DNA of 64,000 bases, from contig JAFTSB010000067.1 in the NCBI GenBank assembly GCA_017461945.1, positions 62,001 to 126,000 on the forward strand, written 5' to 3'. This DNA comes from Clostridia bacterium. Lineage in GTDB: Bacteria; Bacillota; Clostridia; Oscillospirales; CAG-272. Under the pieces are notes generated by a model. It saw only the letters and a program-made list of their open reading frames with translations. It was not told the origin of the DNA and did not search any database. The translations under genes were made by a program, and so were the position numbers. Within the stretch, counting starts at the first letter, position 1. Each line of letters opens with the position of its first letter. This document shows positions 2,469-14,441 of the stretch, piece after piece.

Positions 2469-3950
2469 TCAGCCAAGATATTTCTGAACGGCCTTCCACA
2501 TATCGGCAGCAGGAACCACGTCGGTAAAGCGAATCTTTCGCTGCCCAATGCCGCGCAAGGGATAAGGGATTTCGGTACCGGTTTTCGCAGAAAGCTCATC
2601 CAGCGCAGCCAAAGGATCGGTAGGATTGGTGCCGTAAAGAGAACGGTAAACATCGTTTGCAAACTTGTAAGGGCTGGCGGTAGAGGCCACGACCATAGGC
2701 TTGGTATCGCCGGACACCTTCATATACTGGCGAGCGGCCGAAAGTGCAACTGCAGTGTGCGTGTCGGCCAAATATCCCGACTCTTTCATGGTGTCTCGGA
2801 TGGTTTGGGCGGTCTCCTCCTCGTTGGCGCAGAAGCCACTAAAGGAGGCGTCAATTGCCTTTTTGATTTCAGGCTCTATGGTATAAGCACCGGTTTTATT
2901 CAAGGACTCCATGTAAGCTGCCGTATGCTCGGCACCGGCCATGAAATAGAGGAGACGCTCCAGGTTGCTGGAGATCAGAATGTCCATAGAAGGGGACATG
3001 GTCAAATGGAAGGCGCGGTTACGGTCATACGTGCCGGTCCGGAAGAAGTCGGTCAAAATATTGTTTTTATTAGAGGCACAGACCAGACGATCAATGGGGA
3101 GACCCATGAGCTTGGCAATATAGGCGGCCAGAATATTGCCGAAATTGCCGGTGGGGACCGTAACATTCATTTTCTCGCCCATTTGTAGCGTACCGTTGTT
3201 CAACAGATCGCAGTAAGCCGATACATAGTATACGATCTGCGGTGCAAGACGTCCCCAGTTGATCGAGTTGGCAGAGGAGAAGAAAAATCCTTTTTCATTG
3301 AGATATTTCACATCCTCGTCGCTGGAGAAGATCTTTTTCACGCCGGTTTGTGCATCATCAAAGTTGCCGTTAATGGCGCAAACATACACATTATTGCCAG
3401 TTTGGGTCTGCATCTGCAGCTTTTGGACACGGCTGACACCGTCAACAGGGTAAAACACCACCATTTTAATACGGTCAATGTCCTTATAGCCCTCCAATGC
3501 CGCTTTGCCGGTATCACCGGAGGTTGCGACCAAAATCAGCGCTGTGCGCTCCTCGCCGGTCTTGACCAAAGCACGGGAGAGCAAACGGGGCATGATCTGC
3601 AGAGCCATATCCTTGAAGGCAGCAGTGGGACCGTGCCAAAGCTCCATAGAAAACACGTTGTTCTTCAGAGCCACCAAGGGCGCAGCACCGCCCACAAAGG
3701 AGCTTTCCGCATAGGCGGCACGGCAGTCGGCCAGCAACTCCTCCTCGGTATAGTCGGTTAAAAATTTGCCCAAAATTTTTGCAGCGCGCGTAGGATAATC
3801 AGCGTTGCGCAATGCCTCGATCTCGGCTACGGTTAAGGTGGGAATGGATTCGGGCACAAACAGACCCCCATCCGAAGCAAGACCTTGCTTGATCACCTGT
3901 GCGGCAGAAAATTTAGTGGCGCTTTGATCGCGAGTACTTTGAAATTTCAT
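2469..3950 (-). CDS. thrC: threonine synthase
   Basis: PLP-dependent enzyme converting O-phospho-L-homoserine to L-threonine, the last step of threonine synthesis. The protein is 493 aa, the long bacterial/fungal (class II) type. It opens with the characteristic STRDQS-like N-terminus. The PLP lysine is in HGPTAAFKD (Lys near 113), followed by the ATSGDTGKAA phosphate-binding loop and GNFGN. No homoserine kinase or dehydrogenase gene lies beside it, so the pathway is scattered. An AAAGGAG-type ribosome site precedes the ATG. It is followed on the same strand by the terminator at 2431-2458. Confidence 0.96.
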   Translation of the reverse strand: MKFQSTRDQSATKFSAAQVIKQGLASDGGLFVPESIPTLTVAEIEALRNADYPTRAAKILGKFLTDYTEEELLADCRAAYAESSFVGGAAPLVALKNNVFSMELWHGPTAAFKDMALQIMPRLLSRALVKTGEERTALILVATSGDTGKAALEGYKDIDRIKMVVFYPVDGVSRVQKLQMQTQTGNNVYVCAINGNFDDAQTGVKKIFSSDEDVKYLNEKGFFFSSANSINWGRLAPQIVYYVSAYCDLLNNGTLQMGEKMNVTVPTGNFGNILAAYIAKLMGLPIDRLVCASNKNNILTDFFRTGTYDRNRAFHLTMSPSMDILISSNLERLLYFMAGAEHTAAYMESLNKTGAYTIEPEIKKAIDASFSGFCANEEETAQTIRDTMKESGYLADTHTAVALSAARQYMKVSGDTKPMVVASTASPYKFANDVYRSLYGTNPTDPLAALDELSAKTGTEIPYPLRGIGQRKIRFTDVVPAADMWKAVQKYLG

Positions 3951-3978
3951 GATAGATATGCTCCTTTAATAGGTTTCA

Positions 3979-4380
3979 TTAGTGCAAGGAACCGTCCGCG
4001 CCAAAGGCGTCGGGAATGTGGTTCACCTTAAAAGGCTTGTTGGTGGATCGGTTCAAGTAGATTTCAATCACATCCAAGCGTGGGATAAGGTTTGTGGGGT
4101 GTTCTTGGAGATAATAGCGCATCGCTTCGACGGTTCGCCGCCTTTTGGCCATATTGACAGCCATAGAAGGGCGGCGTTTCAAGGAATCCTCCGAACACTC
4201 AAAGGTCAGGGATTTTACCTCCACAAAGACAATATAGCGGCCGTCGCGCATTACAAGATCCAGTTCATTCTTGCCACATTGGCAATTTCGATTCAAGAGC
4301 TTGTATCCTTGCTTTTTTAAGTGTCTTGCAGCCGCATCCTCGCCTAAAAATCCGATGTCTTTTTTAGAAAACAGCTTCAT
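3979..4380 (-). CDS. YraN/UPF0102 family nuclease-like protein
   Basis: A 133-aa protein of the UPF0102 family, with a restriction-endonuclease-like fold related to Holliday-junction resolvases. Visible features are the N-terminal helix GEDAAARHLKKQGY, then NELDLVMRDGRYIVFVEVKS, where D, E and K form the PD-(D/E)xK-like core (residues about 40-57). The start is ATG at 4380, overlapping the rnhB stop by four bases (ATGA), so the two are translationally coupled; longer upstream readings lie inside rnhB and are not credible. The rnhB-yraN adjacency is conserved in many bacteria. Exact function unknown. Confidence 0.9.
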   Translation of the reverse strand: MKLFSKKDIGFLGEDAAARHLKKQGYKLLNRNCQCGKNELDLVMRDGRYIVFVEVKSLTFECSEDSLKRRPSMAVNMAKRRRTVEAMRYYLQEHPTNLIPRLDVIEIYLNRSTNKPFKVNHIPDAFGADGSLH

Positions 4381-4978: not shown

Positions 4979-5854
4979 TTACGGTGCCTCCTTACCAAGG
5001 AAATCCAGCGTAATGCGGCCGATTTTGGCAGCGCGGAACTCGTCCAACAGGGTGTTGGCGGTCCGCTCCTCATTGATATCGCCGCCGCTGATCAAAAAAC
5101 CGCGCTTCTTACCGATCAGCTCAAAAAGCTCATAATCGGTTAGCTCTGACGCTGCATCGGGATCGAATTTATAGCGAGCGCCCAGCAAAGCAGGGTAGTG
5201 GGAACGCAGCTTGTGGCATAACGCCACGGCAAGCGTCTCGATCTGTACGACGTCATCCTTGATGGCGCCGGTGATCGCCAGATTTTCGCCAATTCTTCGA
5301 TCATCAAATCGCGGCCAAAGCACGCCGGGCATATCCATCAGATCCAGCCCTAAAGAGGTGCTGACCCATTGTGGGGCAAGCGTTACACCGGGGCGATTTT
5401 CCACCTTGGCTTTTTTATTGCCGCAAAGGCGATTGATCAGAGAGGATTTTCCCACATTGGGGATTCCTACAACCATTGCGCGCAGCTTGCGTCCGCTCAT
5501 ACCCTTTTGATTGTAGCGTTCGATCTTATCCGAAAGCAGCGCGCGGATAGTGGGCATCAGCTTGTCCATTCCTTTGCCGCTGACACAGTCCACGGCAAGG
5601 CATGTCTGGCCAAGGGAACGATAATGGGCGATCCAACGCTCGGTGGCATCGGGATCTGCCAGCATCGCCTTGTTTAACAGCGTGACCACCGGTTTTCCCT
5701 CGGTCAGCTTTTCGATTTCGGGGTTGCGGGAGCTATACGGAATGCGCGCATCCAAAAGCTCGATCAAAACATCCACATTTTTAAGATTTTCCTGCATCAA
5801 ACGGCGGGTTTTCGCCATATGACCGGGAAACCATTGAATAATATCTGTTGGCAT
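4979..5854 (-). CDS. rbgA: ribosome biogenesis GTPase YlqF/RbgA
   Basis: GTPase needed for late 50S subunit assembly. Its circularly permuted G-motif order is visible: G4 (LLNKAML) near residue 60 comes before G1 (GIPNVGKSS) near residue 130 and G3 (DMPGV) near residue 175, diagnostic of the YlqF/YawG group. The protein is 291 aa with the usual C-terminal helical domain. It is placed between lepB and rnhB as in Bacillus-like operons. Confidence 0.95.
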   Translation of the reverse strand: MPTDIIQWFPGHMAKTRRLMQENLKNVDVLIELLDARIPYSSRNPEIEKLTEGKPVVTLLNKAMLADPDATERWIAHYRSLGQTCLAVDCVSGKGMDKLMPTIRALLSDKIERYNQKGMSGRKLRAMVVGIPNVGKSSLINRLCGNKKAKVENRPGVTLAPQWVSTSLGLDLMDMPGVLWPRFDDRRIGENLAITGAIKDDVVQIETLAVALCHKLRSHYPALLGARYKFDPDAASELTDYELFELIGKKRGFLISGGDINEERTANTLLDEFRAAKIGRITLDFLGKEAP

Positions 5855-8488: not shown

Positions 8489-8677
8489 GGGTGCCATTAC
8501 AATTATTTTAAATAAGTCAAGGTATCAATTGTTTTTCGCATTTAAAATTTTTAATAAAAGCCAAAGATGGAATTGTCTATTAAAAAAAATAATCAAAGAT
8601 AATAATAAATATTTTTTATGGAAACAATCCGTGGTCGTTGCAGCAGTTTTTTGTAGAATGAAAAGATTAAATACTTT

Positions 8678-8714
8678 CATTAAAAATTTTAAATAAAAAC
8701 GATGGATCGTCCAT
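8678..8714. repeat. degenerate direct repeat, copy 1
   Basis: A 37-base word beginning CATTAAAAATTTT and ending GTCCAT; about 31 of 37 positions match the copy at 8844-8880. After each copy there is a T-rich stretch and then ACGCGTTC. Confidence 0.6.
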
Positions 8715-8843
8715 CCGGCAACTTTTTATTGATTGGCGGAAAACGCGTTCGCAAATGGCAATGAAAATTTTTGAACAAAACAAGGGAGAGTCCGTTGAAA
8801 GAAATTTTAAAAAAGCATATATGATCCGCCACAGCCTTTATAA

Positions 8844-8880
8844 CATTAAAAATTTTCAACGAAAACGATGAACTGTCCAT
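8844..8880. repeat. degenerate direct repeat, copy 2
   Basis: Second copy, 166 bases to the right of the first. Weaker resemblances near 8540 (TTTAAAATTTTTAATAAAAG) and near 9010 suggest an older array with a unit of roughly 140-170 bases. Confidence 0.55.
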
Positions 8881-9165
8881 AAGATCCATTTTTATTAAAC
8901 GCATCCAAGCGATCGGCACGCGTTCAGAATAAAAGGTATTAAAAGTTCAAAACGCTCCTTGGCTCAGGGGCTATTTATTTACCAATGTAGATCAGAAAGA
9001 ACACTTCGAAACAAACCTCGCTAAAAACACCATTTAACAAAGACATCCGCATTGCAACGCGTTCGATTGATTTATCCCGGCTTTTTTATCCCCTTTTTTA
9101 TACAAAACTTTGATTTTGTATAATTTAATACATATTTTAAAAAGGGGTAAGCCCTCCACGTTTAT

Positions 9166-9194
9166 AGTATATCATACTCTTTTTGTTTTGTCAA
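9166..9194 (-). promoter_or_regulatory. leftward sigma-A promoter at the element's left edge
   Basis: TTGACA (9194-9189), 17-base spacer, TATACT (9171-9166) on the minus strand. It would transcribe leftwards into the AT-rich region, where no gene is seen. Confidence 0.65.
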
Positions 9195-9227
9195 GAAGTA
9201 ATTTGCGCCAACTGGGTGGGGCGAAGG

Positions 9228-9279
9228 GGCGCTGCACTTGGGTGCCCCCCACTACTGGTGGGGCCCCCAAGTGAGCGCC
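9228..9279. repeat. long GC-rich imperfect hairpin
   Basis: Arms beginning GGCGCT(G)CACTTGGG pair with CCCAAGTGAGCGCC, with about 20 paired bases around a short TACTG loop. It lies in a ~120-base block present left of the left cassette but absent at the right cassette. It could serve a single-stranded replication intermediate or be a small insertion; no function is shown. Confidence 0.6.
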
Positions 9280-9296
9280 ATTTTCGCAAAGCAAAA

Positions 9297-9320
9297 AGCC
9301 GTAGCGCTTGCGCCACGGCT
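9297..9320 (-). terminator. intrinsic terminator of leftward antisense RNA
   Basis: AGCCGT/ACGGCT outer and GCGC/GCGC inner stem, followed on the minus strand by TTTTTGC. It lies about 200 bases downstream of the leftward promoter at 9504-9532. Confidence 0.7.
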
Positions 9321-9392
9321 TCAATTTGCCCTACTCTTAGACTTGCTCCGTTATGGACGGGCTTCGTAAACAAGCCGAAAGGAGGTGATATT

Positions 9393-9479
9393 ATGCTACT
9401 ACATCGTATTTGCTATTTTGTCAATGTCCATGGCCAAATGTTCCTTGACATAATAGCATTGCTCGTTGTCGCAAGATAA
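9393..9479 (+). CDS. 28-aa hydrophobic small protein, left cassette
   Basis: ATG at 9393 is preceded by AAAGGAGGTGAT (9378-9389), fully complementary to the 16S 3' end. The peptide has a polar N-terminal third with CY..N.H.QM, then a hydrophobic run LDIIALLVVA ending in Arg. Its partner at 14008 has the same length; 14 of 28 residues are identical and most others are conservative (V/I, L/I, R/K), which argues that it is translated. Enclosure by an inverted repeat that reaches the ribosome site, together with a strong opposing promoter, resembles type I toxin-antitoxin loci. I do not recognise a named family. No convincing plus-strand promoter was found. Confidence 0.65.
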   Translation: MLLHRICYFVNVHGQMFLDIIALLVVAR

Positions 9480-9503
9480 CACGCTCTTTCGGCTTGCCCG
9501 TCT

Positions 9504-9532
9504 ATTATACCATAACGGGCAAGTCTTGTCAA
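9504..9532 (-). promoter_or_regulatory. near-consensus leftward promoter antisense to the 28-aa ORF
   Basis: TTGACA (9532-9527), 17-base spacer, TATAAT (9509-9504) with an extended TGG before the -10. A 9-bp dyad CTTGCCCGT/ACGGGCAAG (9493-9501 and 9515-9523) straddles the -10 and could be an operator. The transcript would cross the small ORF in antisense and end at 9297-9320. Confidence 0.8.
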
Positions 9533-9717
9533 GAGCCAAGGTAGATACCTCAATCCACCCCTAACCGAATTTGTAGCCGTGGAAAACGCAAGCGCTTTTT
9601 GTTGGCCCGGGGGAGCATCTCGCCGCGCACCTCTCGGTGTCTGCGGCTTCGGTCACCTCGTCTGCGGACTCGGAAAAATGGCAATTAGGGATGGTGTCCC
9701 TGACCCACCCACCCTTG

Positions 9718-10512
9718 TTAGTCGGTGTCGGTTGTGAGCGGTTCCCTTCTCTCTTTGGGCAAGGTCAAAAGGCGGTTGGTCTGTAGCACCTTCCATCGGT
9801 CTGCAACTTCGGTGGGTACGCTTTTATAACGGCCTGCATAGCAGTGGGTATCGTAGGAGCGGAAAAAGGGGTTGATGAAGCCAACGAGGGTGCGCATATT
9901 GTCTTCGGTATTCCCTTCTTCTACTGTCTTGATTTCCTCGGAAATGCTGATGTTACGGCACTTGACCCAGTAGAAGCACAGAAACTTCTTAAAGTGCATC
10001 AAGTTATACACTACGTTAATGCGGCGGCGGATTTCAAGCACGATGTTTTCGGAGCACTGGTCATTGCACACGATATAGCCACCGCGCGTGTAGTGTCGAA
10101 ATAATCGAATGGCTTCGTTAAAGTTCTTCAGCACCAAGGGATTTTTGAAATCAAACTGATTGGCAAATGCACCTATCTCGTCAATGAAAACCACGGAGCG
10201 TGGGACGATACGTTCCCACAAAAGCAAATGCCCTGCTGTGAGAACTTCGGCATACTCCTTGCGGCTGATGCGCAAAGGGATAGACGAATATAGCAAGGGC
10301 TTTTCCCATCTATCCTTGGGGTGCAAAAGGTTGTGCCATTTCACCTTGCGGCGGTTTTTACGTAGCAACTTCTTTGCCTGCTGTACCGATTTTAATGACT
10401 TCCCCGAGCCAAGGCCGCCAGTATAACATTGAATGGTGTCATAATGGATGATGTAAGGCTTAATGAGCCACACAAGAAAGATGATTGTCAGCGCAATGAT
10501 AAGAAATGCCAT
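9718..10512 (-). CDS. Zot/pI-like filamentous phage assembly ATPase
   Basis: 264 aa from the ATG at 10512 (AAGGAGA five bases upstream). An N-terminal membrane segment (about residues 3-20) is followed by a Walker A loop GGLGSGKS (32-39) and a Walker B strand VVFIDEIG (107-114), the layout of the Zot domain shared by cholera Zot and inovirus gene I proteins. Such proteins energise assembly and extrusion of the filamentous virion at the inner membrane. It starts one base after the preceding frame, in the final position of the structural operon. No secretin gene follows, as expected for a host with a single membrane. The family call is from motifs and context; a profile search would settle it. 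Confidence 0.85.
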   Translation of the reverse strand: MAFLIIALTIIFLVWLIKPYIIHYDTIQCYTGGLGSGKSLKSVQQAKKLLRKNRRKVKWHNLLHPKDRWEKPLLYSSIPLRISRKEYAEVLTAGHLLLWERIVPRSVVFIDEIGAFANQFDFKNPLVLKNFNEAIRLFRHYTRGGYIVCNDQCSENIVLEIRRRINVVYNLMHFKKFLCFYWVKCRNISISEEIKTVEEGNTEDNMRTLVGFINPFFRSYDTHCYAGRYKSVPTEVADRWKVLQTNRLLTLPKERREPLTTDTD

Positions 10513-10513
10513 A

Positions 10514-11119
10514 TTATCTCCTTCCTCGCCACTCACTACCATAGAATTTATCAAAATCTACAGTATCAGCGGCAACACCGATATTTATACCATCCATTCT
10601 GACCTCGCCGTCCTCTACCATCCGTTGCCAGTCCAACGGCAACAAACAATACTTGAAAGCGTTAAACCAATCTTTCGAATTAAAGACTCGGTCAAGATAA
10701 CTGGTCATAGTTCCCCACGCATTACGGATAGGCAGAGTCAACCACTCTACGGCGGTTTGGATATTTGACCATAACTTGGGAAAAACACCGCCAAGATTGT
10801 CAAAGAAATGCCGCATATAAGTTATACAGTTATTCATAAAGTCTGTGATGGCCTTGGGCACTTCAGACCATTTTTCAACACTAACTTCTTGCCAACTGGG
10901 GAAATTAGGCATTAACTCAACATAGCGCGGCACAAACCCTTCCTTGTGATATTCTACATCATCAAGGGTTGGGAAGGTTTCAAAAAGCACGGCCATACGA
11001 TTGAGATATTGAGCCGCATTGATGTGATAAGTGCTCACGATCGGCATTGATCCTATCTTTGCAAACAGAGCCGATACCAGTAATGCGGCACACAAAACGA
11101 AAACAAAAAACGTTCTCAT
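10514..11119 (-). CDS. membrane-anchored inovirus-like structural/assembly protein
   Basis: 201 aa from the ATG at 11119, which overlaps the previous stop by four bases (ATGA). A GTG four codons earlier is possible. One hydrophobic N-terminal segment (residues about 3-22) precedes a Trp/Phe-rich soluble part with amphipathic helices; no known motif is seen. Its place between the 65-aa membrane protein and the Zot ATPase is that of a minor virion or assembly gene (pVI/pI region of Ff-type phages). Function is inferred from position only. Confidence 0.7.
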   Translation of the reverse strand: MRTFFVFVLCAALLVSALFAKIGSMPIVSTYHINAAQYLNRMAVLFETFPTLDDVEYHKEGFVPRYVELMPNFPSWQEVSVEKWSEVPKAITDFMNNCITYMRHFFDNLGGVFPKLWSNIQTAVEWLTLPIRNAWGTMTSYLDRVFNSKDWFNAFKYCLLPLDWQRMVEDGEVRMDGINIGVAADTVDFDKFYGSEWRGRR

Positions 11120-11313
11120 CGTTTCAACCACCCTTTATATTTCATAAAGCGAAGCAAAAAATGGTAAGGCACACACACAAAGAAATGTACCATCACGGCG
11201 GCTACGGCGGTGATGAAGATATAGTAGAAGGTCTTTTCGCCATAGCCTTCGTATAGGCTTAAGTCGCCAAAATGAGGCATAATGTACGTATGAAGAATTT
11301 CATAAAAGGTCAT
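11116..11313 (-). CDS. 65-aa single-span membrane protein of the phage operon
   Basis: One long hydrophobic span (YIFITAVAAVMVHFFVCV, about residues 31-50) and a basic C-terminus. AAGGAGG lies seven bases before the ATG. It is translationally coupled to the next gene by an ATGA overlap. Size, topology and position fit a minor coat protein of a filamentous phage (pVI/pVII/pIX-like), but there is no diagnostic motif. Confidence 0.7.
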   Translation of the reverse strand: MTFYEILHTYIMPHFGDLSLYEGYGEKTFYYIFITAVAAVMVHFFVCVPYHFLLRFMKYKGWLKR

Positions 11314-11325
11314 ATACTTCCCTCC

Positions 11326-12276
11326 TTATCCGAAGAAGAATTTGCCACAGATGCCAATCACGAAAGCGGCAACAACGAACGTAAACACTTGGACTACTAC
11401 ACCTGCAAGATTGAAACCGAAAACCTCAAAATCAAACATGGTCGATACCGCCCTATAGGGAGCAAATGCAATCTCGCCTATAATGTCAAGGAAACTTTCG
11501 CTTACATCGTTGCTTTCGCCTTTAGTGACTCCGTTTCTGTACGCAGTATTAACTTGTTCAGCAACATCAGCAAGGCCTGCGGCCTTTCCTTCGTCAAAGC
11601 CTTCATTATAGCCGCTTGGTTCACCATCGTTAAAACCCTCTTCGTACCCGTCATTCCACGCAAAGCCCAAATCTTCCTCATCATAATATCCTGCATGTTT
11701 TTCAATCCAAAAGATAGGGGGTGTATATGGCATTGAATAGACTCCAACCGTACTGGGTAAAGCGTTCAAATTCATTGAAATAGAAGTGTCTAAACCATTA
11801 CCACCATTGGCATAATAAAGCCATATGGTGCAATGTGCCCCAGCCTTAACCACAGAAGACGAACACTCGTAATTATCATCACCGATAAGCCGTATTTCGC
11901 TTTCAGTACCATCTAAATTCTCGATATAAACAACAATCTGCCAGTCAAGCATTTCAGAGTCCTCTATTGGGCGATCCGTATATTCAACAGTAACACCGAA
12001 ATATACATCTTGGGTGGTAAACAATTCAAAAGAGCCAAGTTTAATTTCATCAGTTTGGCTTTCGTGATCTATTACCATATCAATCACCCCATTTGAGTGA
12101 ATAACATAATTGCACTCCTGCCTTTCAATAGGAATTTCAGGCATTTCATTCCAAATGATGTGATTTGTATAAATATTTTCTTCCATTGGGCTAAGATATG
12201 TTGCCGATGCCGTAACGGCAAACGCAGAAACCATCAGCACAACCAGAGTCAGCAATACAAACATTCTCTTTTTCAT
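11326..12276 (-). CDS. pIII-like secreted and membrane-anchored adsorption protein
   Basis: 316 aa with a cleavable-looking signal peptide (residues 1-25, ending ASA), a large Tyr/Glu/Asp-rich extracellular part, a Gly/acidic repeat segment (GY..GF.DG units at about 207-235), and one C-terminal membrane span (about 288-312). This is the architecture of inovirus gene III adsorption proteins: secreted head, flexible glycine-rich linker, C-terminal anchor. AGGAGAAAG precedes the ATG. It is the first gene after the coat-protein terminator and is followed 12 bases later by the 65-aa membrane protein. Confidence 0.75.
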   Translation of the reverse strand: MKKRMFVLLTLVVLMVSAFAVTASATYLSPMEENIYTNHIIWNEMPEIPIERQECNYVIHSNGVIDMVIDHESQTDEIKLGSFELFTTQDVYFGVTVEYTDRPIEDSEMLDWQIVVYIENLDGTESEIRLIGDDNYECSSSVVKAGAHCTIWLYYANGGNGLDTSISMNLNALPSTVGVYSMPYTPPIFWIEKHAGYYDEEDLGFAWNDGYEEGFNDGEPSGYNEGFDEGKAAGLADVAEQVNTAYRNGVTKGESNDVSESFLDIIGEIAFAPYRAVSTMFDFEVFGFNLAGVVVQVFTFVVAAFVIGICGKFFFG

Positions 12277-12296
12277 TTCTTTCTCCTTTCAAATAA

Positions 12297-12327
12297 AAAC
12301 CCCATCCGGCATTGCTGGATGGGGTTT
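12297..12327 (-). terminator. terminator after the major coat gene
   Basis: 11-bp stem AAACCCCATCC/GGATGGGGTTT followed by TTTTTATTT on the minus strand. It separates the 74-aa coat-like gene from the adsorption gene, the same position as the central terminator of Ff phages. Confidence 0.85.
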
Positions 12328-12331
12328 ATTA

Positions 12332-12556
12332 TCAGCCGCGCAGGTGCTTGATAAAGGCAAAAATGCCCATTACAAGACCAATCGCAAGACCAATGCCGCC
12401 GACAGTCAGACCAACTTTTGCAATGTCCGAGAGCACAGGCTCGGCTGCTGCAGGGTCAGCATAAATCAAATGCGAAAATGCCGTTTTAATGCCCTGCGTC
12501 ATAGGCTCGATGATGCCAGTAAAGCCATCGCCAATCTGTTTAACGATATCGCCCAT
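12332..12556 (-). CDS. major coat protein-like (pVIII-like) small protein
   Basis: 74 aa: an amphipathic N-terminal part, an acidic/Ala stretch (YADPAAAEPVLSDI), one hydrophobic helix (VGLTVGGIGLAIGLVMGIFAF, about residues 48-68) and a basic tail KHLRG. Acidic-hydrophobic-basic order on a short helix is the hallmark of filamentous phage major coat proteins, whose basic end contacts the DNA. A strong ribosome site AAAGGAG overlaps the preceding stop. It is followed at once by a strong terminator. No clear signal peptide is seen, so it would insert without cleavage or be processed unusually. Confidence 0.75.
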   Translation of the reverse strand: MGDIVKQIGDGFTGIIEPMTQGIKTAFSHLIYADPAAAEPVLSDIAKVGLTVGGIGLAIGLVMGIFAFIKHLRG

Positions 12557-12558
12557 TA

Positions 12559-12720
12559 TTACTCCTTTCCGACAAGCGCAAGAAGCAAGCGACGGTCGCT
12601 CTTGAACACGGGTTTGATGGGAATATCAAAACCGCGCACGCGCAGAATTAACTGCTCAAAATGTACCTTCTCGCCCGTCTCCTGATTGTCAAAATCACGG
12701 GTTTCAGTATAAAGTTCCAT
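12559..12720 (-). CDS. 53-aa protein in gene V position
   Basis: Small soluble protein: an acidic N-terminus (ELYTETRDFDNQETGE), two strand-like segments (FEQLILRVRGFDIPIKPVF) and a C-terminal KSDRRLLLAL stretch. AGGAGG lies nine bases before the ATG, and a perfect 12-bp-arm hairpin (12736-12760) abuts that site. It lies between the Rep gene and the major coat gene, where Ff-type phages carry the single-stranded-DNA-binding protein (gene V). No homology can be claimed; that role is inferred from position and beta-like pattern. Confidence 0.6.
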   Translation of the reverse strand: MELYTETRDFDNQETGEKVHFEQLILRVRGFDIPIKPVFKSDRRLLLALVGKE

Positions 12721-12735
12721 ATGCACATACCTCCT

Positions 12736-12760
12736 TTATGGCTTTATTATAAAGCCATAA
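12736..12760 (-). promoter_or_regulatory. hairpin abutting the ribosome site of the 53-aa gene
   Basis: TTATGGCTTTAT and its perfect complement with a single central base. On the minus-strand RNA the 3' arm runs directly into AGGAGG. It may modulate translation or protect a processed mRNA end. Confidence 0.55.
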
Positions 12761-12776
12761 ATCCGAATATGATATA

Positions 12777-13361
12777 TCACTCTAAAATTTCTCCAGTTTC
12801 TGTATCGCACGTATTCCACATAGGGCTCTGTGCCAAAGCAACCAATTTCAGCAAGGAATTTGCTTGATAAATGAAGGAAGGGTGTGTGCGCAAAAATGCC
12901 TTGTAGCCAATTTGATTTAAAGCAAGGGATTCAATATCTTCAAGCAGAGTTTCGTTCTTATCTTCTTCGGTCTGCTCTGTGACCTTTTGAAGCACTTCTT
13001 CTAATTCGGCAGGGGCTAAATTAGTATCAAGGTCAACTTGCTTATATTCGGGCTTTTCGGGGTTATCCAAATGGAGCAAATATCGCACCGCGCCGTTGGG
13101 CTTGGTGGCAAGAGGGGCTTGCACAAATCTATTGTCAAGGCCAAGCCGCTTGGCTATGGTGTACTGAAATTCCCTTTTATCCGACATCACAACAAGGTGA
13201 AAATGGACTTTTTTGGCCGTTCCATCTTCGTTAATGTCTTGGTCATGTTTTATCATCGCATAACGATAGCCAAAGGCCTTAAGGCCTGCCCTTACGCTCT
13301 CTACGTGTTCCTCATAGAACATGGACGGAAACCACTTTGCACGCGCTCCTCTTTCAGCCAT
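12777..13361 (-). CDS. rolling-circle replication initiator, Rep_2 family
   Basis: 194 aa. The HUH metal-binding motif is seen as HFH (residues 53-55) in KKVHFHLVV, and the catalytic Tyr region as AVRYLLHLDNPEKPEY (Tyr near 94), both typical of the Rep_2 family of small Gram-positive plasmids (pMV158-like). It would nick the double-stranded origin and start rolling-circle replication of a single-stranded-DNA phage genome. It overlaps the upstream regulator-like gene by eight bases. The length is shorter than plasmid Rep proteins with a long C-terminal domain; a C-terminal helical region is present. Confidence 0.87.
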   Translation of the reverse strand: MAERGARAKWFPSMFYEEHVESVRAGLKAFGYRYAMIKHDQDINEDGTAKKVHFHLVVMSDKREFQYTIAKRLGLDNRFVQAPLATKPNGAVRYLLHLDNPEKPEYKQVDLDTNLAPAELEEVLQKVTEQTEEDKNETLLEDIESLALNQIGYKAFLRTHPSFIYQANSLLKLVALAQSPMWNTCDTETGEILE

Positions 13362-13635
13362 TTCTCGCCACCTCGCTTTCGTTCACAATTTGTTCATGGA
13401 CAATGGACAATGGGGGCAGATGGTCGCAGTACATCTGCCCTGCCCACCCTTCCTCTGCAGGGTCAAAATCGTCAACGAAAATACCGTAATATGGGTTTTG
13501 AGTACATCCAGTTACAATGCGGTGCACTTGTAACCAAGATAGACCAAGGAAACGTGCAACGTCTGCTTGCGAGTAAAACAACGCTACTGGTAATTGTGCT
13601 TCGGTGCGCTTTTCGTAAATAAGATATGAACGCAT
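13354..13635 (-). CDS. small protein with HTH-like segment, probable phage regulator
   Basis: 93 aa from the ATG at 13635. The segment SQADVARFLGLSWLQVHRIVTG (about residues 22-43) reads as a helix-turn-helix; the C-terminal half is acidic and aromatic. It is the first gene of the element's operon and overlaps rep, a usual position for a copy-number or transcription regulator. I do not recognise a family. Its ribosome site GGAGG is the 3' arm of a 9-bp hairpin that is followed by seven T residues. Confidence 0.65.
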   Translation of the reverse strand: MRSYLIYEKRTEAQLPVALFYSQADVARFLGLSWLQVHRIVTGCTQNPYYGIFVDDFDPAEEGWAGQMYCDHLPPLSIVHEQIVNESEVARNG

Positions 13636-13642
13636 AAAAAAA

Positions 13643-13666
13643 CCTCCACAGTTTTTACTGTGGAGG
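13643..13666 (-). terminator. terminator-like hairpin that sequesters a ribosome site
   Basis: On the minus strand CCTCCACAG, a 6-base loop and CTGTGGAGG are followed directly by TTTTTTT and then the ATG of the 93-aa gene. The hairpin can act both as an intrinsic terminator and as a mask of GGAGG. Confidence 0.75.
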
Positions 13667-13923
13667 GCTTGCAATCTAAAAATATAATAAATTATGCCCT
13701 ATACGGGCACTCGCTCTACCCGCGCGCCTTGCGGCTTTCAAAGCACGGGCGAGTACAAAATCAGCATTTTGTGCAAAGAAGCAAATGTATAGGTAAAAAG
13801 CCCTACTGGCTTTTTGCAATCCTTCTTTACACAAAACACACGCTCGATTTTGTATAATTGTATGTATAAATAGATGAGGGCATGTGCCCCCTTGCTCCCT
13901 TGTTATAGCATACCTTTCGAATT
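13667..13923. other. element intergenic/origin-like region
   Basis: Noncoding stretch rich in inverted repeats: GCCC/GGGC (13691-13710 area), a longer imperfect pair around CTCGC...GCGAG (13709-13753), ACAAAAT/ATTTTGT (13754-13771), and the terminator hairpin at 13795-13815. Hairpin-dense noncoding DNA next to rep is where the replication origins and packaging signal of a filamentous phage would lie. I could not pick out a Rep_2 nick site. The open frames crossing it (for example 13676-13939 minus) lack ribosome sites. Confidence 0.55.
13795..13815. terminator. bidirectional terminator hairpin
   Basis: Perfect 8-bp stem AAAAAGCC/GGCTTTTT with a 5-base loop. It would stop leftward transcripts coming from the right cassette before they reach the phage operon. 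Confidence 0.75.
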
Positions 13924-14143
13924 GCGCCACGGTTGTCAATTTGCCCTACTCTTAGACTTGCTTCGTCATGGACGAGCTTCGTAAACAAGCCGAAAAGAGG
14001 TGATATCATGCCGTTTAAAACTTTTTGCTACATAATCAATACTCACACCCAAATGATACTTGATATTGTAGCACTAATCGTTATTGCAAAATAACACGCT
14101 CTTTCGGCTTGCCCGTTTATTATACCATAACAGGCATGTCAAG
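13924..14143. repeat. direct-repeat cassette, right copy
   Basis: About 220 bases matching 9310-9533 in the same orientation. It ends 28 bases from the spoIIID stop codon. The leftward promoter is altered here: TTGACA (14142-14137) and TATAAT (14124-14119) are only 12 bases apart because of a 5-base deletion, though the extended TGG-TATAAT remains. The 10-bp inverted repeat CAAGCCGAAA/TTTCGGCTTG enclosing the small frame is kept. Confidence 0.85.
14008..14094 (+). CDS. 28-aa hydrophobic small protein, right cassette
   Basis: Same length and layout as the left copy: a Lys-bearing N-terminus, CY..N.H.QM, hydrophobic LDIVALIVIA and a C-terminal Lys. The ribosome site is AAAAGAGGTGAT, one base off the perfect left version. 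Substitutions relative to the left copy are mostly conservative, so both are probably real peptides, possibly membrane-active. Toxin-like behaviour is inference. Confidence 0.6.
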   Translation: MPFKTFCYIINTHTQMILDIVALIVIAK

Positions 14144-14171: not shown

Positions 14172-14441
14172 TCAGATGTTCTTTTTTTCGCCACTATTTT
14201 TATACTTTTGGCGCGTAGCCTCGCCGCCACGCAAATGGCGCTCGTTTTTGTTTTTTTGTAAAATATCCTGTACGCGCTCAAACAAACAACGATTGACCCC
14301 TTGCAATTCTACTGTAACGTCTTTATGTACGGTGCTTTTGCTGATGCCAAAATATTGTGCAGCGGCACGAACGGTGCAGCCGTATTCCACAATATAATTC
14401 CCGATCAGCTCGCAGCGCCTTGGTTGACTGAAGTATGCCAT
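14172..14441 (-). CDS. spoIIID: sporulation transcriptional regulator SpoIIID
   Basis: 89-aa DNA-binding regulator that acts in the mother cell between the sigma-E and sigma-K stages of sporulation. The HTH GCTVRAAAQYFGISKSTVHKD (about residues 21-41) and the basic C-terminal block ERHLRGGEATRQKY are diagnostic; the usual length is about 80-95 aa. The presence of spoIIID marks the host as an endospore former. Its 3' end directly adjoins the right cassette, so the phage-like element was inserted immediately downstream of it. Confidence 0.95.
   Translation of the reverse strand: MAYFSQPRRCELIGNYIVEYGCTVRAAAQYFGISKSTVHKDVTVELQGVNRCLFERVQDILQKNKNERHLRGGEATRQKYKNSGEKKNI

What the first reader, a model, noticed from the sequence alone, without database searches (positions are those of the whole stretch)
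9310..14143. Compact inovirus-like filamentous prophage in a spore-forming Clostridia genome
Seen: on one strand, in Ff-like order, an HTH-like gene, a Rep_2/HUH replication gene, a 53-aa gene, a short coat-like protein with acidic-hydrophobic-basic layout, a terminator, a signal-peptide plus C-terminal-anchor adsorption-like protein, two small membrane proteins and a Zot-type ATPase with intact Walker motifs. Repeats at both ends define a unit of about 4.6 kb, small for the group. No secretin gene is present, as expected for a single-membrane host, and no integrase is visible. Known: inoviruses are recognised mainly by the Zot/pI ATPase and small coat proteins. Inference: this may be an active or recently active filamentous phage or a phage-derived element.
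Basis: partly seen in the sequence, partly recalled or inferred. Interest (0 to 1): 0.78.

Follow-up and report, generated by a model that had tools for sequence, protein, structure and literature searches.

The report
Filamentous phage lodged at chromosome terminus
A small filamentous phage in an uncultured spore-forming gut bacterium sits in what looks like the bacterium's own chromosome-dimer-resolution site, and it probably gets in without an enzyme of its own by folding its single-stranded DNA into a copy of that site, a trick known from the cholera-toxin phage and not met for Gram-positive bacteria in the papers searched.

Summary
The block is an inovirus-like provirus (Zot-type ATPase, Rep_OBD replicase, coat-like and adsorption-like proteins), but the 205-nt repeats are not its ends. 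It spans 4,734 nt (9123-13856) between a palindrome TATACAAAA-N6-TTTTGTATA (9099-9122) and a copy with an 11-nt centre (13828-13856). The palindrome behaves like dif: one copy in this genome; exactly one in 69 of the 73 (of 146) family genomes that have it; 43-174 bp from spoIIID, with no phage between, in 13 of 17 same-genus loci; GC skew changes sign around it in 7 of 7 long contigs. Six related proviruses without a detected integrase also lie at dif or a variant; six of nine proviruses elsewhere carry an integrase. In five dif proviruses, this one included, an inverted second dif-like site can pair with the long-centre site, as described for CTXphi attP(+). In the same five a near-consensus promoter at the zot end points across the attachment site, so integration should part it from the replication genes. 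Best reading: a Xer-dependent, CTXphi-type provirus in a Gram-positive host with apparently one Xer-like recombinase. No experiment or read evidence shows activity.

The parts
9099..9122 (.). dif-like palindrome TATACAAAA-CTTTGA-TTTTGTATA, left attachment site
   Evidence: single copy in own genome at <=2 mismatches; family, genus and GC-skew data
9123..13856 (-). provirus between equivalent points of the two attachment sites, 4,734 nt
9166..9194 (-). near-consensus promoter TTGACA-N17-TATACT at the zot end, pointing across the left attachment site
   Evidence: 1 mismatch; counterparts in four related proviruses
9321..9525 (.). repeat R_A inside the element: about 126-nt imperfect hairpin with ribosome-binding site and 28-aa ORF (9393-9479, +); a perfect TTGACA-N17-TATAAT on the minus strand at 9504-9532
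9718..10512 (-). Zot/pI-type ATPase, 264 aa from ATG, N-terminal hydrophobic stretch
10514..11131 (-). 205-aa membrane-type protein, no family found
   Evidence: only a weak positional counterpart in G463 (E 0.05)
11116..11313 (-). 65-aa small membrane protein
   Evidence: homologues in G229, G370, G463
11326..12276 (-). 316-aa adsorption-like protein with signal peptide and C-terminal anchor
   Evidence: homologues in circular inoviruses and proviruses
12332..12556 (-). 74-aa coat-like protein
   Evidence: PF05356 E 0.015, below cut-off; homologues
12559..12726 (-). 55-aa protein, perhaps the ssDNA-binding protein (guess from position)
   Evidence: no family
12777..13361 (-). replication initiator, Rep_OBD
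   Evidence: PF01719 E 5.5e-12
13354..13635 (-). helix-turn-helix-like protein (ATG start)
   Evidence: weak HTH hit PF13542 E 0.006; weak counterpart in G229 (E 0.009)
13754..13777 (.). inverted dif-like site with a 6-nt centre (attP2-like)
   Evidence: pairs with the long-centre site
13828..13856 (.). long-centre dif-like site TACACAAAA-N11-TTTTGTATA, right attachment site (attP1-like)
13936..14140 (.). repeat R_B outside the element, read as remnant of an older tandem neighbour; 28-aa ORF 14008-14094
   Evidence: the remnant reading is inference
14172..14441 (-). spoIIID, host gene flanking the site
   Evidence: PF12116 E 5.7e-31; TIGR02844 E 2.6e-27, below its cut-off

Best explanation
A filamentous-phage provirus without an integrase that entered the chromosome at dif by borrowing the host's Xer recombinase. 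The phage strand carries two inverted dif-like sites, one with a 6-nt centre and one with an 11-nt centre, which pair around a loop and recreate a dif-like duplex with a bulge; the host recombinase exchanges this with chromosomal dif. An intact dif remains at the zot end, so dimer resolution can go on, and a long-centre site at the rep end, a poor substrate as double strand, so the provirus stays. New phages enter at the remaining dif, so tandem arrays form; R_B is most likely the leftover of an older neighbour. Because the attachment site lies between the end promoter and the replication genes, integration should cut the promoter off; circularisation or a tandem neighbour should restore it. 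Shown by sequence: gene content, sites and their position, phage-free loci, recurrence, pairing capacity, no detected integrase, promoter placement. Inferred: which recombinase acts, that the substrate is single-stranded, silencing, any activity.
For: Palindrome once in own genome at <=2 mismatches; 73 of 146 family genomes at <=1 mismatch, 69 of them exactly once, reversed control 3 of 146. 43-174 bp from spoIIID without mismatch in 13 of 17 same-genus loci. GC skew positive left and negative right in 7 of 7 contigs. 5 of 14 Zot loci in 395 family genomes lie at it without an integrase; chance of 5 or more within 6 kb about 1e-8. Tandem arrays at dif in L123 and G370. Inverted partner site pairs better than 500 of 500 shuffles in 4 of 5 phages; DNA folds z -4.3 to -6.9 in three phages, both strands. 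CTXphi attP1/attP2 layout in passages of PMC4246890. Promoter with <=1 mismatch at the zot end in 5 of 6 dif proviruses scanned. One strong XerC/D-like protein per genome in 56 of 59 and 7 of 7.
Against: Half of the family genomes lack the palindrome at <=1 mismatch, and 3 of 17 genus loci lack it near spoIIID. The skew maximum is 12.5 kb off in the own contig and 11.8 kb in G020. Bases next to the right arm are shared between dif and the far site over only 1-2 positions in window, G229, G463 and L123. G370 fails the shuffle test (11 of 500 reach it). G432 and the G370 remnant show no promoter in the stretch scanned, and the DNA right of the window's far site supplies none. The missing inner promoter is weak evidence: about one chance hit was expected in those 3.1 kb in all, and consensus scans miss promoters. 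Zot and coat hits are below cut-off. The genomes are mostly metagenome assemblies; no reads, circles or assays.
Confidence: 0.75

Rival explanations
1. Dif-located provirus integrated as double-stranded DNA by ordinary Xer recombination (VGJphi- or TLCphi-like); the inverted site and hairpin serve replication or packaging.
For: G116 looks like this: variant dif with a 17-bp repeat of centre and one arm at its far end. Filamentous phage intergenic regions carry hairpins anyway (recalled).
Against: Centres of 11-12 nt in window, G229, G463, G370 and L123 match the CTXphi site that passages call unsuitable as double strand; the partner site pairs with exactly this site in all five.
Confidence: 0.15
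2. The palindrome is not dif but an operator or other conserved site, and some other recombinase inserts the phages there.
For: No biochemistry. It differs from the B. subtilis dif (recalled sequence; no match within 9 mismatches on the own 128-kb contig).
Against: One copy per genome, 9-6-9 arms with variable centre, different neighbour genes in other genera, skew switch, use by proviruses without a detected integrase.
Confidence: 0.07
3. One reading: insertion by recombination between the 205-nt repeats.
For: R_A and R_B are direct copies 4,615 nt apart.
Against: Only 81% identical; no second repeat match at E <= 1e-3 except a 29-nt hit among 195 relatives, and R_A lies well inside the dif-type boundary; related proviruses have no room for R between dif and zot.
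Confidence: 0.03

Closest known systems
CTXphi-type element exploiting Xer (filamentous phage of Vibrio cholerae)
   Same: Filamentous phage without integrase at dif; two inverted dif-like sites, one with a long centre (12 bp there, 11-12 here) and one with a short one (5-7 there, 6-7 here); tandem arrays (passages of PMC4246890)
   Different: Gram-positive Clostridia host; a symmetric dif of another sequence; apparently one Xer-like recombinase; sites about 50 nt apart in the window instead of 90; end promoter separated from the replication genes by the attachment site
Inoviruses of Enterocloster and Hungatella (PMC10061712, passages)
   Same: Inovirus proviruses in Gram-positive gut Clostridia flanked by direct repeats
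   Different: The main text holds no word beginning with Xer; particles were shown there, not here
bajarodino virus 71, PQ006122.1
   Same: Circular 5.3-kb inovirus with the closest Zot in the phage collection (53.8%); coat- and adsorption-like homologues
LME-1 and XerL/dif of Legionella (PMC9765430, passages)
   Same: A mobile element reveals an unnoticed dif served by a single recombinase; altered site at one end of the integrated form
   Different: Not a filamentous phage; Gram-negative host; another recombinase

Membership tests
Inoviridae-like filamentous phage | Zot/pI-type ATPase | tested here: met
   53.8% identity to an annotated inovirus Zot; 5 of 7 relatives hit PF05707; own Pfam hit below cut-off
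Inoviridae-like filamentous phage | small hydrophobic major coat protein | tested here: inconclusive
   PF05356 E 0.015, below cut-off; homologue in PQ006122 E 1e-6 in a small ORF set
Inoviridae-like filamentous phage | rolling-circle replication protein | tested here: met
   Rep_OBD E 5.5e-12
Inoviridae-like filamentous phage | filamentous particles and circular ssDNA | not testable with these tools
   needs culture or reads
IMEX (element exploiting Xer) | lies at chromosomal dif | tested here: met
   dif by conservation, single copy and skew, not by assay
IMEX (element exploiting Xer) | no integrase of its own | tested here: met
   none within 9 kb of zot with five recombinase queries
IMEX (element exploiting Xer) | integration needs the host Xer recombinase | not testable with these tools
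   needs assay or xer removal
CTXphi-type attP(+) | two inverted dif-like sites, one with a long centre, able to pair on one strand | tested here: met
CTXphi-type attP(+) | recombination of the folded single strand with dif | not testable with these tools
   needs in vitro reaction
XerCD/dif double-recombinase system | two Xer paralogues, XerC and XerD | tested here: inconclusive
   one strong hit per genome; own protein misses XerC, XerD and XerS cut-offs, but only 4 of the 14 control genomes pass the XerD cut-off; own genome 85% complete

The most novel reading that the evidence does not exclude
A group of filamentous phages in Gram-positive Clostridia enters dif as folded single-stranded DNA with a single-recombinase Xer system, and uses the attachment site as a switch: integration separates the end promoter from the replication genes, and the circle or a tandem neighbour reconnects them. 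The phages thereby also reveal an undescribed, symmetric dif of their host family.
Probability: 0.45. Interest if true: 0.82.

Novelty: new variant of a known kind. Interest (0 to 1): 0.72.

Why it matters
In the papers seen here, integration of a phage as folded single-stranded DNA is described for Vibrio and other Gram-negative hosts. The same layout, fitted to another dif sequence, in gut Clostridia would mean that the strategy works in single-membrane bacteria and perhaps with one recombinase instead of two. It gives a testable dif and Xer partner for an uncultured family, explains how small inoviruses without an integrase persist there, and offers a clear, testable switch (a promoter split off by integration).

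Tried and rejected
Rejected: the 205-nt repeats as attachment sites (see rivals). G419 as a dif case: an integrase of its own and a 71-bp repeat whose reading frames look like a tRNA gene (by eye, not tested) lie near its zot, 3.4 kb from dif. The hits to the repeat at C31:730 and G004:C21: short stretches around a ribosome-binding site before unrelated ORFs. The palindrome as spoIIID terminator: no T-run after the stem on the spoIIID strand (by eye).

Led nowhere: viral-contig scans with Zot alone, Rep alone and A4 (no relative); A1 gave one distant locus; the repeat against phages (no match); Rfam with E <= 1 (five hits, all below gathering score); NCBIfam for Zot, Rep and coat (none); PDB by sequence (two hits that look unrelated, none); 28-aa peptides in Pfam (none); Zot alignment over 394 genomes of the order (4 genomes, all known from the family); AlphaFold of the ATPase (mean pLDDT 48, too poor to search with).

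Literature: no Gram-positive inovirus at dif appeared in the listings or in passages of six papers. The library holds only CC-licensed PMC papers and the listings are capped, so this is no proof of absence.
Full report
1. What is there. Eight minus-strand ORFs lie between 9718 and 13674. The 194-aa protein is a Rep_OBD initiator (E 5.5e-12). The ATPase (264 aa from ATG) has only a sub-threshold Pfam Zot hit (E 0.008), but it is 53.8% identical over 78% of its length to the Zot of bajarodino virus 71, a circular 5,276-nt inovirus, and 5 of 7 aligned relatives hit Zot. The coat-like and adsorption-like proteins have homologues in circular inoviruses and related proviruses. Walker A is GGLGSGKS, with a hydrophobic stretch before it. 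A structure model was too poor to use (mean pLDDT 48).

2. Where it ends. The 205-nt repeats (9321-9525, 13936-14140) are 81% identical. A better pair of ends exists: TATACAAAA-CTTTGA-TTTTGTATA at 9099-9122 and TACACAAAA-N11-TTTTGTATA at 13828-13856. Equivalent points are 4,734 nt apart. What follows the right arm at 13857 resembles, by eye, what follows the palindrome in some relatives such as L034.

3. The palindrome looks like dif. In this genome (85% complete) it occurs once at up to 2 mismatches. At up to 1 mismatch it occurs in 73 of 146 family genomes, exactly once in 69 and twice in 4; a reversed control pattern hits 3 of 146. The other 73 lack it at that limit; many are incomplete, and at least one (G116) seems to have a variant. 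In the genus, 13 of 17 loci have it without mismatch 43-174 bp from the matched end of spoIIID, one has it at 1,075 bp, and three not at all in the 0.7-1.2 kb held; the centre varies while the arms do not. In other genera the neighbours differ. I took seven contigs in which it lies far from the ends (own, G147, G048, G052, G047, G224, G020). All seven have positive GC skew in the 40 kb left and negative in the 40 kb right (33.7 kb held in G224). The cumulative maximum lies -12.5, +0.25, +0.19, +4.3, +3.5, -5.7 and +11.8 kb from it, in stretches of 114-160 kb that I had chosen around the motif (128 kb, the whole contig, for the own one).

4. The recombinase. A XerC/D-like protein of 364 aa (C62:82576-83667) is present once, at E <= 1e-40, in 56 of 59 relatives. 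A XerD model finds one strong hit (E 1e-51 to 1e-61) per genome in 7 of 7 and otherwise weaker, irregular ones. The own protein misses the XerC, XerD and XerS cut-offs; only 4 of 14 control genomes pass the XerD cut-off, so this says little. A single-recombinase system, as known for XerS and XerH (passages of PMC5357621) and XerL (passages of PMC9765430), is likely but not proven.

5. Phage-free sites. In the 13 loci nothing fits between dif and spoIIID, and none of these 13 genomes has a Zot match. Of six compared by BLAST, L021, L035 and L027 also hold DNA matching the gene left of the provirus within 1.2 kb of spoIIID, L029 holds a matching ORF, and L024 and L028 do not show it in the DNA held.

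6. Recurrence. A Zot alignment found 14 loci in 13 of 395 family genomes. Six have a dif within 5 kb of zot. G419 is dropped: integrase and 71-bp repeat of its own. That leaves five: window, G229, G463, G370, G432. With 12 kb of about 2.1 Mb as target, five or more of 14 has a chance of about 1e-8. G432's far end and G370's far end are beyond their contigs. A scan of named genomes gave 12 loci; six are contigs already seen (same lengths as G229, G463, G370, G116, G432, G419). Of the six new ones, L123 (JAFTKO010000033.1, roe deer caecum MAG) lies at dif: dif, inovirus, long-centre site, then a second, different inovirus. L128, L129, L132, L133 and L134 show no such site in the DNA held, four of them being contigs of 3.4-5.3 kb. 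G370 has dif, a 1.1-kb remnant with what looks like a rep start, a long-centre site, then a provirus. Both are tandem arrays that begin at dif. G116 has a variant palindrome TATACTAAA-GTTCCA-TTTAGTATA and a 17-bp repeat of centre plus one arm 5.8 kb away, and no standard palindrome at <=1 mismatch.

7. Integrases. With the Xer-like protein and four integrases as phmmer queries, within 9 kb of zot or up to the contig end, none of the seven proviruses at dif or its variant has a hit. Of nine others, six do (G146, G334, G419, G108, G018, own C31); L129 has a Xer-like ORF about 5 kb off, possibly the host's; G362 and G036 have none (L127 is the G116 contig and is not counted).

8. Folding. Beside the long-centre site (11 nt in window, G229, G370; 12 in G463, L123) each of the five has an inverted dif-like site with a 6-7-nt centre. 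Pairing of the two beats 500 of 500 shuffles in window, G229, G463 and L123, with the long-centre side 4-6 nt longer; in G370 11 of 500 reach the score, since its outer arm lies beyond the 150 nt tested (fold of the longer stretch). Single-strand DNA folds: z -4.45 and -5.84 (window, plus and minus strand), -6.77 and -6.85 (G229), -5.18 and -4.34 (G463). Controls: 13863-13977 -0.56; 9050-9164, which holds dif, -3.60; 13600-13714, which holds a terminator-like hairpin, -4.57. So a low z alone is not special; the pairing of the two dif-like sites is. CTXphi, by passages of PMC4246890: attP1 with a 12-bp centre, attP2 with 5-7 bp, inverted, separated by 90 bp, excision never detected under standard conditions.

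9. Promoter. In five dif proviruses (window, G229, G463, G370, L123) a TTGACA-N17/18-TATAAT promoter with at most one mismatch lies at the zot end, on the gene strand, pointing across the attachment site; background is 0.018 per 150 nt of strand, stretches scanned were 128-166 nt and 595 nt in the window (two hits). G432 (216 nt) and the G370 remnant (139 nt) have none; G116 was not scanned. Between far site and first gene none with <=2 mismatches was found in 4 of 4 complete elements, but about one chance hit was expected in those 3.1 kb together, so the absence says little. In L123 the DNA right of the long-centre site supplies a perfect promoter pointing into the first phage; in the window it supplies none. 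In the circle the end promoter would read into the replication genes; in a single provirus it reads into the host. That this is a switch is inference; Tn916 and mycobacteriophages with attP-split control are analogies I recall.

10. R. Each 205-nt repeat folds into a hairpin of about 126 nt (RNA z -5.81 and -6.37; 90.2% of cells paired, four pairs changed on both sides, matched by 96 of 500 shuffles). It holds a ribosome-binding site and a 28-aa hydrophobic ORF; flanks are 93-94% identical, the ORF 64%, pN 0.29 against pS 0.60. No other near-full copy in the genome. Candidates: packaging hairpin or type I toxin-like module; not settled. Its right copy is read as a remnant of an older neighbour because proviruses stand in tandem at dif in L123 and G370.

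11. Novelty. Inoviruses in Gram-positive Clostridia are known (PMC10061712 and PMC6813254, passages); the word Xer does not begin any word in either main text. Dif-integrating filamentous phages are known in Gram-negatives. The combination was not met in the eight searches named under Tried and rejected. Hence: new variant of a known kind.

Noticed in passing
window 9321-9525 and 13936-14140: Two copies of a long imperfect hairpin holding a 28-aa hydrophobic ORF whose ribosome-binding region is paired with the 3' end; ends conserved, ORF diverged. Packaging hairpin or type I toxin-like module.
   Followed up: partly
window 13636-13666: Hairpin CCTCCACAGT/ACTGTGGAGG plus seven T on the minus strand directly before the ATG of the helix-turn-helix gene, its right arm supplying the ribosome-binding site: looks like an attenuator (z -3.9).
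   Followed up: partly
L120 (G000:C31), zot 8678-9517, integrase 3501-4376: A second inovirus-like Zot locus in the same genome, with a tyrosine integrase nearby and no dif-type site.
   Followed up: partly
L109 8944-9009 and 14274-14339: In G229 the right arm and 53 nt beyond it are repeated without mismatch at both ends, more than Xer exchange alone would give.
   Followed up: partly
L111, between dif 5180-5203 and long-centre site 4078-4106: A 1.1-kb stretch with what looks like a rep start and the folded site, like a miniature phage, between dif and the next provirus.
   Followed up: partly
window 8500-8920: AT-rich repeats about 80 nt apart left of dif; similar units stand at the same place in G001 (L021).
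   Followed up: no
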